Assembly (NCBI GenBank): GCA_030667705.1
Contig: DAOUVJ010000005.1
Location: 1 to 44,175, forward strand
Reading direction: 5' to 3'
DNA from: Promethearchaeota archaeon
Lineage (GTDB): Archaea > Asgardarchaeota > Lokiarchaeia > Sigyniarchaeales > SOKP01
Length of the DNA stretch: 44,175 nt
The position numbers were made by a program, and so were the translations under genes. This document shows, piece after piece, positions 12,508 to 31,256 of the stretch. The notes under the pieces are model-generated. The model did not search any database. It was not told where the DNA came from and was given only the letters and a program-made list of their open reading frames with translations. Position 1 is the stretch's first letter. Each line of letters starts with the position of its first letter.

Positions 12508-13725
12508 ATGAAAAAATCGGATTATATTTTGATTGCAGTCACAATTTTAGTATTCACTTTTGTATTAGCACCAATCATTATCTTTAACGATTCCTTGTAT
12601 ATAATAAAAGGGGGCTCAATGGAGCCGAATCTTTATCATGGAGATCTAGTTATTGTAATAGATAAAGAACCAGCAGACATTCAAGCGGGATATCAAGATG
12701 GTGACATTGTCGTAATTAAGGGACCTGAGTATTATACAGATCAAGGCGCTGAACCAGATTTCTGTAGTACCCCTAATAATACTAGAATCATCCATCGAGT
12801 AATTGACAAGAAACTAATTAATGGTACGTGGTATTTTCTAACTAAAGGGGATAATAATGCGATGATTGATGGTTCTATTCGTACAATCGTTAAATCAGAG
12901 GATTATTCCATATTTGAATATAACGAATCAAACGGAGTTTACATTACTGAAGATGCTATTCTAGGGGTAGTTATATCCGATTTTAAAATTCCCTTCATTG
13001 GATATTTGCAAGAATATGGATTATTAATTTCTATAATTCTTATAATTTCAATGCTTATATATCAATTATTCTCTAAGAAATGGCAGTTTCAGCTATTTAA
13101 AAGCAAGAGAGGTGAAAAAAAGTTGATAAAATCCAAATCTTACTTGATTTTATCCAGTATTTGCTTGATAATATTGTTTTTACAGATTGTATTGATGATG
13201 AATCCATGTTTTCTTAACATGCCTAACAATTCCATGAATCCAACCCTGAACCAAAATGATTTAACAATCTCAACAACTAAAGATCCTGCTGATATTTTGA
13301 TTGGCGATATCGTAATTATTAAAAGTCCCCATTATTTTTATGATAGGGGTTTTCCTCCAATACTTTGGAGTAATTTCCCAAATTCTTCTTATATCATTCA
13401 CAGGGTTGTAGATAAAATGAACATGAATGGAAGCTGGCATTTCAAGACTAAAGGAGATAATAGTGGGTACGAATTTGATGGAATGTATAGAACATTAATA
13501 TCAAGCCCGGGTTATTTATTATTTGAATACAATAAAACTAATATCATATATATTCCTGAAGAAGCTATTTTAGGTGTAGTGGAATTTAAAGTCCCGTTTA
13601 TTGGATTTTGGAAGGATAATTATTTATTCAACTTATTTATCATTATCACCCTTCAAATGCTAATCATAATTTTTAAAAAAACAAACATGAAAATTAAGCT
13701 CATAATACGAGATATCAATAAATAA
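12508..13725 (+). CDS. tandem (two-unit) signal peptidase I, archaeal/ER type
   Basis: Signal peptidase I (family S26) cuts signal peptides on the outer face of the membrane. The chain contains two copies of the whole enzyme. Unit 1 has an N-terminal membrane helix, the catalytic serine in GGSMEP (codon 12616), the catalytic histidine in IIHRVI (codon 12793), the box TKGDNN with a following Asp, then PFIGYL and a membrane helix. Unit 2 repeats this: helix, serine in NNSMNP (codon 13231), IIHRVV, TKGDNSG with following Asp, PFIGFW and a C-terminal helix. The His in place of Lys marks the archaeal/eukaryotic Sec11 type. A TTG at 12469 would add 13 residues; the ATG at 12508 gives the natural lysine-rich start before the first helix. 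Confidence 0.9.
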   Translation: MKKSDYILIAVTILVFTFVLAPIIIFNDSLYIIKGGSMEPNLYHGDLVIVIDKEPADIQAGYQDGDIVVIKGPEYYTDQGAEPDFCSTPNNTRIIHRVIDKKLINGTWYFLTKGDNNAMIDGSIRTIVKSEDYSIFEYNESNGVYITEDAILGVVISDFKIPFIGYLQEYGLLISIILIISMLIYQLFSKKWQFQLFKSKRGEKKLIKSKSYLILSSICLIILFLQIVLMMNPCFLNMPNNSMNPTLNQNDLTISTTKDPADILIGDIVIIKSPHYFYDRGFPPILWSNFPNSSYIIHRVVDKMNMNGSWHFKTKGDNSGYEFDGMYRTLISSPGYLLFEYNKTNIIYIPEEAILGVVEFKVPFIGFWKDNYLFNLFIIITLQMLIIIFKKTNMKIKLIIRDINK

Positions 13726-30480: not shown

Positions 30481-30513
30481 TTCTTAAACTTTTCTCTCTT
30501 TGGCTAATTTGAT
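30481..30513. repeat. 33-nt direct repeat, left copy
   Basis: It matches 30992-31024 at 29 of 33 positions without gaps; a 16-nt core (CTTTGGCTAATTTGAT) differs at one base. The right copy is part of the 3' end of the eS26 gene. Read on the minus strand in the eS26 frame, the left copy would give QISQREKSLR against QISQRNKNLR in eS26, so the differences are conservative. Confidence 0.6.
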
Positions 30514-30572
30514 TTAAACCCTTTGGTAAGATTATTGTGTTATTCATCTCACTTTAAAGAAAACGTATTTTC

Positions 30573-30611
30573 GTCCCGTTAGGACTGTAAATTTTTATTT
30601 TTATTTTTTTA
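30573..30611 (+). terminator. probable terminator of the PIN-TPR gene
   Basis: GTCC and GGAC pair around a 5-nt loop (30573-30585) and are followed by long T runs up to 30611. It is 97 nt past the stop codon, so it is only a weak candidate. Confidence 0.4.
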
Positions 30612-30614
30612 TGA

Positions 30615-30866
30615 ATAATCTTAAAAACTTTTAGAATTCGGGTACTTAACCCATCTACAATATCAAAACTGTTACTTGAATATCGCATTAATCACCTTAC
30701 TTCTCAAAAAAATCGATTAGAAAGGCATTCGATTTCAAAGGGAGATTCTATTGGAAAATATTACATGTTTACTTCAAGGGATTTAGATAAATTTAAAAAT
30801 AAAATGAATCTCAAGCAAATTGATTTTAAGTTTATATTGATGAACAATTCTCATATCTGGTTGTGA
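30615..30866 (+). pseudogene. startless coding-like frame, possible gene remnant
   Basis: The frame is open for 84 codons with no ATG/GTG/TTG near its beginning. The translation (including NPSTISKLLLEYRINHL and SRDLDKFKNKMNLKQI) looks protein-like, with a helix-turn-helix flavour. It ends inside the first stem of the RNA candidate. It may be a decayed gene fragment of an inserted element, or chance. Confidence 0.25.
30831..30838 (+). promoter_or_regulatory. TATA-like box of the RNA candidate
   Basis: TTTATATT is centred 25 nt before G30859, the first base of the closing stem of the structured segment. This is normal archaeal TATA-to-start spacing. Confidence 0.5.
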
Positions 30867-30960
30867 CACTTCAGCAAAGCAGAGTTAGTGCAAGCTTTGC
30901 CACCGAAGGATCCAAGTTTACAATGCAGCACAAACGGAGCGGCGCGAGTTGCGCACAACC
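30859..30960 (+). ncRNA. candidate structured RNA of unknown class
   Basis: About 102 nt, clearly richer in G and C than its surroundings, fold as a multi-branched molecule. Closing stem: GGTTGTG (30859-30865) with CACAACC (30954-30960). Arm A: CTTC (30869-30872) plus GCAAAGC (30874-30880) with GCTTTGC (30894-30900) plus GAAG (30905-30908), interrupted by a one-sided internal loop. Arm B: TCC plus GTTT (30911-30919) with AAAC plus GGA (30932-30938). Arm C: GCG (30942-30944) with CGC (30952-30954 region). The TATA-like box and a T-rich tract after 30985 favour the + strand. It lacks the conserved T-loop of tRNA, the RNase P core and SRP domain IV. Alternatives are a 3'-derived RNA of the eS26 transcript (minus strand) or a guide RNA. 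Confidence 0.55.
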
Positions 30961-30983
30961 TGATGAAGTATGAATAATATGAA

Positions 30984-31256
30984 TCATTCTTTTCTTAAAT
31001 TTTTATTTCTTTGGCTGATTTGATGGCTGTGGACTGCACAGGATATACAATAGTAATTTTTTTTGGTAGGAGTTTGAATAATCGTTCCTGTTTTTTTTAG
31101 TTCAGCGTACATTCTTCCATCAACTAAAGAAACTCTTCTAGTCACCGCTTTGGCTTTACTTCTCGGTACAAATCTCCCGCATTTGGAGCACTGAACTCTT
31201 GCATAGTGTCCCTTACTGGAACCACTCTTACCGCTACTCTTTCTCTTCTTTGGCAT
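30984..31256 (-). CDS. rps26e: small-subunit ribosomal protein eS26
   Basis: eS26 sits at the mRNA exit channel of eukaryotic-type small ribosomal subunits; among archaea it occurs in some TACK and Asgard lineages. The protein has a basic start (MPKKRKSSGKSG), the GHYARVQCSKCGRFVPRSKA core with C23 and C26, and the second zinc pair in YYCISCAVHS (C70, C73). It has 90 residues, close to archaeal homologues and shorter than eukaryotic ones. A TATA-like TTTAAATA lies about 45 nt upstream (near 31300). Its last codons form one copy of a 33-nt direct repeat. It is a strong lineage marker. Confidence 0.93.
   Translation of the reverse strand: MPKKRKSSGKSGSSKGHYARVQCSKCGRFVPRSKAKAVTRRVSLVDGRMYAELKKTGTIIQTPTKKNYYCISCAVHSHQISQRNKNLRKE
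30992..31024. repeat. 33-nt direct repeat, right copy (inside the eS26 3' end)
   Basis: Partner of 30481-30513, 511 nt away. It covers codons for the QISQRNKNLR region of eS26, ending 5 nt before the stop codon region. Confidence 0.6.

What the first reader, a model, noticed from the sequence alone, without database searches (positions are those of the whole stretch)
30859..30960. GC-rich multi-branched RNA candidate with its own TATA box
Seen directly: a 7-bp closing stem and three internal arms, all Watson-Crick, 25 nt after a TATA-like box, in an otherwise AT-rich gap. GC-rich islands in AT-rich archaeal genomes are a known sign of functional RNA. I could not match it to tRNA, RNase P, SRP, tmRNA or a known riboswitch. 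A new small RNA class, a guide RNA or an eS26-linked RNA are open options.
Basis: partly seen in the sequence, partly recalled or inferred. Interest (0 to 1): 0.78.

Follow-up and report, generated by a model that had tools for sequence, protein, structure and literature searches.

The report
Stray retron DNA copy in Lokiarchaeon
The GC-rich "RNA candidate" is a stray genomic copy of the part of a retron RNA that a reverse transcriptase turns into DNA; such copies are scattered through the genomes of Lokiarchaea, which suggests that retron DNA gets inserted into chromosomes there.

Summary
The island at 30859-30960 is real but is not a gene with its own promoter. It is part of a 131-bp element (30843-30973) that is dispersed: 7 matches in the host MAG, matches in 36 of 65 genomes of its Lokiarchaeota family, and absent next to eS26 in relatives. 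A covariance model built only from Type XIII retron RNAs of other genera (six at RT loci plus one lone full-length RNA) matches the window's MINUS strand (71 bits, E 3e-19). The window copy holds the msd (the reverse-transcribed part) and lacks a1, the msr hairpin and a2. Dispersed copies end at the two predicted msd edges. In G045, which carries the retron, eight copies are 97-100% identical to one of its two tandem ncRNAs. Two clean empty sites in sister genomes show insertion without target duplication. I conclude that the window holds an old retrocopy of retron msDNA; copying and integration are inferred from anatomy. New here, as far as I could check: ncRNAs of Lokiarchaeal Type XIII retrons, in tandem sets downstream of the RT with diversified covarying msd stems, and wide dispersal of msd copies. 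Nearest precedent: the Nannocystis exedens msDNA-like repeats.

The parts
30843..30973 (-). Solo msd copy of a Type XIII retron ncRNA (RNA sense = minus strand; the plus strand is the cDNA sense, 5' end AACAATTC)
   Evidence: R1 match; R2, built without own-genus sequence, matches 31052-30825 minus with 71 bits, with a good alignment over the msd only
30859..30960 (-).
   Evidence: helix 4: 5 of 6 pairs changed on both sides
30888..30931 (-). Distal msd hairpin: GTGC..GCTTTG / CAATGC..GCAC (one mismatch) around the conserved loop 30900-30920 (RNA sense ..GGATCCTTCGGTGG)
   Evidence: arms exchanged between retron RNAs yet complementary
30941..30954 (-). Small hairpin GCGC-GAGTT-GCGC of the msd
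   Evidence: helix 5, hardly variable
30851..30973 (-). Outer short stem TCATAT (30851-30856) / GTATGA (30968-30973)
   Evidence: helix 3, little covariation
30500..30842 (.). AT-rich rest of the insertion, origin unknown
   Evidence: absent from relatives with empty site; only weak matches elsewhere
30481..30513 (.). Diverged (88%) duplicate of the eS26 3' end (30992-31024) at the far edge of the insertion
30831..30836 (+). TATA-like word TTTATA outside the element, on the strand opposite to the RNA; probably chance
30984..31256 (-). Ribosomal protein eS26 gene, convergent neighbour
   Evidence: PF01283, 57 bits
28506..30476 (+). TPR-like protein gene, convergent neighbour on the other side
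   Evidence: TPR_12 match below the curated cut-off

Best explanation
The feature is a retrocopy of retron msDNA. A Type XIII retron (reverse transcriptase, SWIM-domain protein, ncRNA) once active in this Lokiarchaeal lineage made msDNA: its RNA closes on a long a1/a2 stem, the RT starts just upstream of AGC-a2 (RNA ...GAATTGTT|AGC) and stops at the foot of the msr hairpin (RNA |GCTTATCATAC...), giving a hairpin-rich cDNA of about 125-135 nt. That cDNA was captured in the chromosome, here between the convergent ends of eS26 and a TPR gene, probably during end-joining repair. The copy cannot be retrotranscribed by itself because a1, msr and a2 did not come along. SHOWN: homology to retron-linked RNA, msd-only content, fixed ends across copies, copies near-identical to the resident retron RNA in G045, empty sites. 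INFERRED: passage through cDNA, the priming nucleotide, the joining route, a defence role of the retron.
For: RT_XIII and SWIM_XIII genes with ncRNAs on the same strand downstream in G035 (x3), G045 (x2), G054 (x3) and at 3.2 kb in G084. Covariation of the ncRNA: 12 of 28 pairs changed on both sides, 18 cells against 5.6+-1.9 shuffled, 0/500. R2, built without own-genus sequence, matches the window minus strand. Copies confined to the msd; copies with readable edges begin at or just inside TTGCC (TTACC in G041) and none passes GTTA into a2. G045: eight copies 97-100% identical to one or other tandem ncRNA of the same genome. G084: copy on C199 nearly identical to the msd of its retron. In own-genus and g8 copies the RNA 5' edge recurs at GCTTATC at unrelated sites. 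Two clean empty sites and an empty eS26 locus in five relatives.
Against: No RT_XIII was found in 24 genomes of the own genus, so the source is not seen there. G054, with an intact retron in 10 contigs, has no dispersed copies, and none beyond the tandem set was found in G035. One G045 copy is an msr-hairpin piece (L222) and two G041 copies include the msr hairpin (L209, L210). The window insertion is larger than the msd. msDNA was not shown to exist.
Confidence: 0.85

Rival explanations
1. The copies are DNA-level mobile elements (MITE-like or IS200/IS605-like hairpin elements) derived from retron msd sequence and moved by a transposase in trans.
For: Short, hairpin-rich, multicopy, without a gene; near-identical families as in G039.
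Against: Ends vary by several nt and by truncation; no target duplication and no common target word at the two clean sites; in G045 both tandem retron RNAs are represented among the copies.
Confidence: 0.08
2. The copies are decayed remains of complete retrons or complete ncRNA genes whose a1, msr and a2 have eroded.
For: L209 and L210 keep the msr hairpin; the own genome has an orphan SWIM_XIII-like ORF with an msd piece nearby.
Against: Near-identical recent copies in G039 and G045 lack everything outside the msd; erosion would not stop at the same two edges; two sites show a precise msd insertion in a collinear region.
Confidence: 0.04
3. A functional small RNA gene on the plus strand with its own TATA box, or a domesticated msd copy with a regulatory role at this locus.
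For: GC island; conserved stem; TATA-like word at about -28.
Against: Absent next to eS26 in relatives; RNA sense is minus; TATA outside the element and common by chance; fold no better than shuffles.
Confidence: 0.03

Closest known systems
Nannocystis exedens msDNA-like chromosomal repeats (Lampson and Rice 1997; Lampson et al. 2002; known to me through the review PMC6868368, originals not read)
   Same: Chromosomal copies of retron msDNA-like sequence without an RT nearby, interpreted by their authors as possible retrotransposition
   Different: Here in archaea, with a Type XIII retron, in dozens of genomes, copies confined to the msd, with source-copy pairs and empty sites; the review describes repeats of msr and msd in N. 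exedens
Type XIII retrons (PADLOC RT_XIII and SWIM_XIII)
   Same: RT and SWIM genes score 541 and 598 bits with these models
   Different: The models do not describe the ncRNA; here it lies downstream of the RT in tandem sets, whereas the standard retron layout in PMC6868368 has msr-msd upstream of the RT
Canonical retron ncRNA (msr-msd)
   Same: a1/a2 closing stem, msr hairpin, msd hairpins, AGC next to a2
   Different: Three tandem copies in one locus differ mainly in the msd distal stem; the window copy lacks a1, msr hairpin and a2
Eukaryotic SINEs and processed pseudogenes (from general knowledge)
   Same: Non-coding RNA apparently copied by an RT in trans; many copies keep the RNA 3' end and lose the 5' part
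   Different: No target-site duplication at the two clean sites; the unit is the msd, not the transcript; the end bias may partly reflect detection

Membership tests
Functional retron ncRNA (msr-msd) - the window copy | a1/a2 inverted repeats closing the RNA | tested here: not met
   Window flanks do not align to a1/a2 in R2
Functional retron ncRNA (msr-msd) - the window copy | msr stem-loop | tested here: not met
   Absent; eS26 coding sequence lies in its place in the alignment
Functional retron ncRNA (msr-msd) - the window copy | msd hairpin region | tested here: met
   R2 71 bits; alignment from the basal stem to GAATTGTT
Functional retron ncRNA (msr-msd) - the window copy | RT gene of a retron nearby or in the genome | tested here: not met
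   No RT_XIII-like match in G000; MAG 92.5% complete
Type XIII retron (G035, G045, G054, G084 loci) | RT and SWIM proteins of the type, adjacent | tested here: met
   PADLOC scores for G035; homologues in the others
Type XIII retron (G035, G045, G054, G084 loci) | Structured ncRNA with a1/a2 stem on the RT strand | tested here: met
Type XIII retron (G035, G045, G054, G084 loci) | Production of branched msDNA | not testable with these tools
   Needs expression and msDNA isolation
Retrocopy of msDNA | Copy limited to the reverse-transcribed part, with recurrent edges | tested here: met
   exceptions L209, L210, L222
Retrocopy of msDNA | Near-identical source RNA in the same genome | tested here: met
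   G045, G084; not for the own genus
Retrocopy of msDNA | Empty site in relatives | tested here: met
   not found for 12 sites of G039, G041 and G045
SINE-like target-primed retrotransposon | Target-site duplication | tested here: not met
   None at the two clean sites; window locus has a diverged 33-45-bp duplication, inconclusive there
Rfam families (all 4227) | Score above the gathering threshold | tested here: not met
   sub-threshold chance matches only

The most novel reading that the evidence does not exclude
Type XIII retrons act as a recurrent source of insertions in Lokiarchaeia: msDNA is regularly joined into chromosomes, producing SINE-like families (18 copies in G039, most near-identical), marking rearrangements, and now and then supplying gene ends (e.g. 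a small-GTPase gene in G000:C150 whose start codon appears to lie in an msd fragment).
Probability: 0.3. Interest if true: 0.85.

Novelty: new variant of a known kind. Interest (0 to 1): 0.72.

Why it matters
Retrons are usually described as fixed elements; [quoted passage not shown] If the reading is right, retron cDNA has entered archaeal chromosomes repeatedly, in relatives of the eukaryotes, and retrotransposition without target priming becomes directly testable. Tandem ncRNAs with swapped, covarying msd stems also suggest that one RT serves several msDNAs, a layout worth testing for phage sensing and for genome editing.

Tried and rejected
Rfam at gathering and relaxed thresholds and ARAGORN: nothing. 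eS26-linked RNA: rejected by synteny. attC/integron site, self-cleaving ribozyme, group I/II intron piece: considered by eye, no defining motif seen, not tested with models. AT-rich flank as part of a larger repeat: only weak matches. Viral contigs: no RT match and no match to the 5' module. Phages: no SWIM match. Methylobacterium bullatum Type XIII locus: RT and SWIM found, but no tandem ncRNA in the flanks checked. G054: predicted dispersed copies were not found. Empty sites for 12 G039/G041/G045 insertions: none found across the junction. Literature: no paper on Type XIII ncRNAs in the held library, and the retron classification paper I looked for by DOI is not held, so I cannot exclude that tandem ncRNAs of Type XIII have been reported. 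Model R1 was built without structure, which costs sensitivity for variable stems.

Full report
WHAT IS IN THE SEQUENCE. The 7-bp stem and the GC-rich island are real, but thermodynamically the fold is ordinary, and the TATA-like word is one of many in AT-rich DNA. There is no tRNA and no Rfam match.

IT IS A DISPERSED ELEMENT. Searching the own genome and 57 relatives with 30840-30980 gave 7 matches in the own genome and matches in 20 of 58 genomes. Flanks are unrelated between most copies, while a 131-nt unit recurs. Relatives with a syntenic eS26 gene lack it. A sequence-only model (R1) found matches in 36 of 65 genomes of the family. Of about 62 matches in that table outside retron loci, by my count, 12 are near full length, 37 keep only the cDNA 5' end (RNA 3' end), 8 keep only the other end and 5 are internal. 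The cDNA 5' module is also the best conserved and so the easiest to detect; this bias is therefore only suggestive.

THE SOURCE RNA. In G035 (same family) three tandem copies sit immediately downstream of a reverse transcriptase gene that has a SWIM-domain gene in front of it. PADLOC models call them RT_XIII (541 bits) and SWIM_XIII (598 bits). Such pairs occur in 4 of 228 genomes of the phylum, all in this class: G035, G045, G054, G084. Each has ncRNAs on the RT strand: three tandem in G035, two in G045, three in G054, and one in G084 at 3.2 kb from the RT. The RNA sense is the MINUS strand of the window. The RNA has an a1/a2 stem, an msr hairpin, and an msd made of a basal stem, a small hairpin and a long distal hairpin. 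On a 7-sequence alignment (six RNAs of RT loci and the lone full-length ncRNA of G084:C172), 12 of 28 pairs change on both sides; 18 cells change on both sides against 5.6+-1.9 in shuffles, 0 of 500 shuffles reach it, and all slid controls are far lower. The distal hairpin was left out of that count because it does not align; tandem RNAs of one locus differ there by exchanged but still complementary arms.

THE WINDOW COPY IS MSD ONLY. The full-RNA model R2 was built without any window or own-genus sequence. It matches the window minus strand (71 bits, E 2.7e-19); the alignment is good from the basal stem to GAATTGTT and not meaningful over a1, msr hairpin and a2. Across 83 genomes of the class R2 gives strong full-length matches only at the retron loci and at G084:C172; nearly all others are confined to the msd (the weak spans listed as 1-196, the window's among them, are end-to-end fits). 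In G039 (18 copies), G041 and G045 the copies begin at TTGCC or a few nt inside and none runs past GTTA into a2. In G045 eight copies are 97-100% identical to one or other of the two tandem ncRNAs of the same genome. In G084 a copy on contig C199 matches the msd of its resident retron almost exactly. Exceptions: an msr-hairpin piece in L222, and two G041 copies that include the msr hairpin (L209, L210).

INSERTION. Two sister copies have clean empty sites: the G006 copy against G012 and G004, and the G000:C100 copy against G005. Both show insertion without target duplication and without visible loss of target, with about 2 bp of microhomology; the second has 5 extra nt at the cDNA 5' side. At the window locus the insertion is larger: the msd copy, some 330 bp of AT-rich sequence of unknown origin, and a diverged 33-45-bp duplication of the eS26 3' end. 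In G039 one insertion cuts a helicase-like gene whose homologues in G045 align up to the insertion, and flanks of several copies match different places on either side; rearrangement and misassembly cannot be told apart here.

INTERPRETATION. The simplest reading is that msDNA made by Type XIII retrons was captured in chromosomes, probably at breaks, and that the window holds one such old copy in a neutral spot between two convergent genes. Homology and msd-only content are shown; passage through cDNA and the joining route are inferred. The missing RT in the own genus fits loss of the source or incomplete MAGs; the own genome keeps an orphan SWIM_XIII-like ORF. Dispersal is not universal: G054 has none.

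COMPARISON. msDNA-like chromosomal repeats were reported in Nannocystis exedens and interpreted as possible retrotransposition (cited in PMC6868368; originals not read). The same review shows msr-msd upstream of the RT as the standard layout. [quoted passage not shown] I found no paper on Type XIII ncRNAs or on msd copies in Asgard archaea in the held library, which is incomplete. Hence: a new variant of a known kind, not a new class.

Noticed in passing
L068 12059-12779; L135 7437-7910; L136 7191-7900: Tandem retron ncRNAs of one locus are nearly identical except in the distal msd stem, whose arms differ yet remain complementary, as if one RT served several msDNAs.
   Followed up: partly
L150 11203-12414 (G000:C116), msd fragment at about 12617-12663: Own genome has an intact 403-aa SWIM_XIII-like ORF without an RT, and a piece of msd 0.2 kb away in the opposite sense.
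   Followed up: partly
L025 about 676-740 (G000:C150): A small-GTPase gene begins inside or at the edge of an msd fragment; the start codon and first residues appear to come from retron-derived sequence.
   Followed up: no
L222 718-753 (G045:C805): An isolated 36-nt stretch identical to the msr hairpin of the resident retron, i.e. a copied piece outside the msd.
   Followed up: no
L209 and L210 (G041): Two copies that include the msr hairpin plus msd but no clear a1/a2; G041 has no RT_XIII match.
   Followed up: no
L196 610-736 (G039:C241): An msd copy cuts a helicase-like ORF; the sequence on its other side is unrelated to the homologous gene in G045.
   Followed up: partly
L190 (NZ_LR743510.1, Methylobacterium bullatum): Unannotated Type XIII SWIM and RT pair on a 2.8-Mb bacterial replicon; no tandem ncRNA seen in the flanks checked.
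   Followed up: partly
L129 5400-8630 (G084:C7): The stretch between the RT and its ncRNA holds a long repetitive, TPR-like open region; not annotated further.
   Followed up: no
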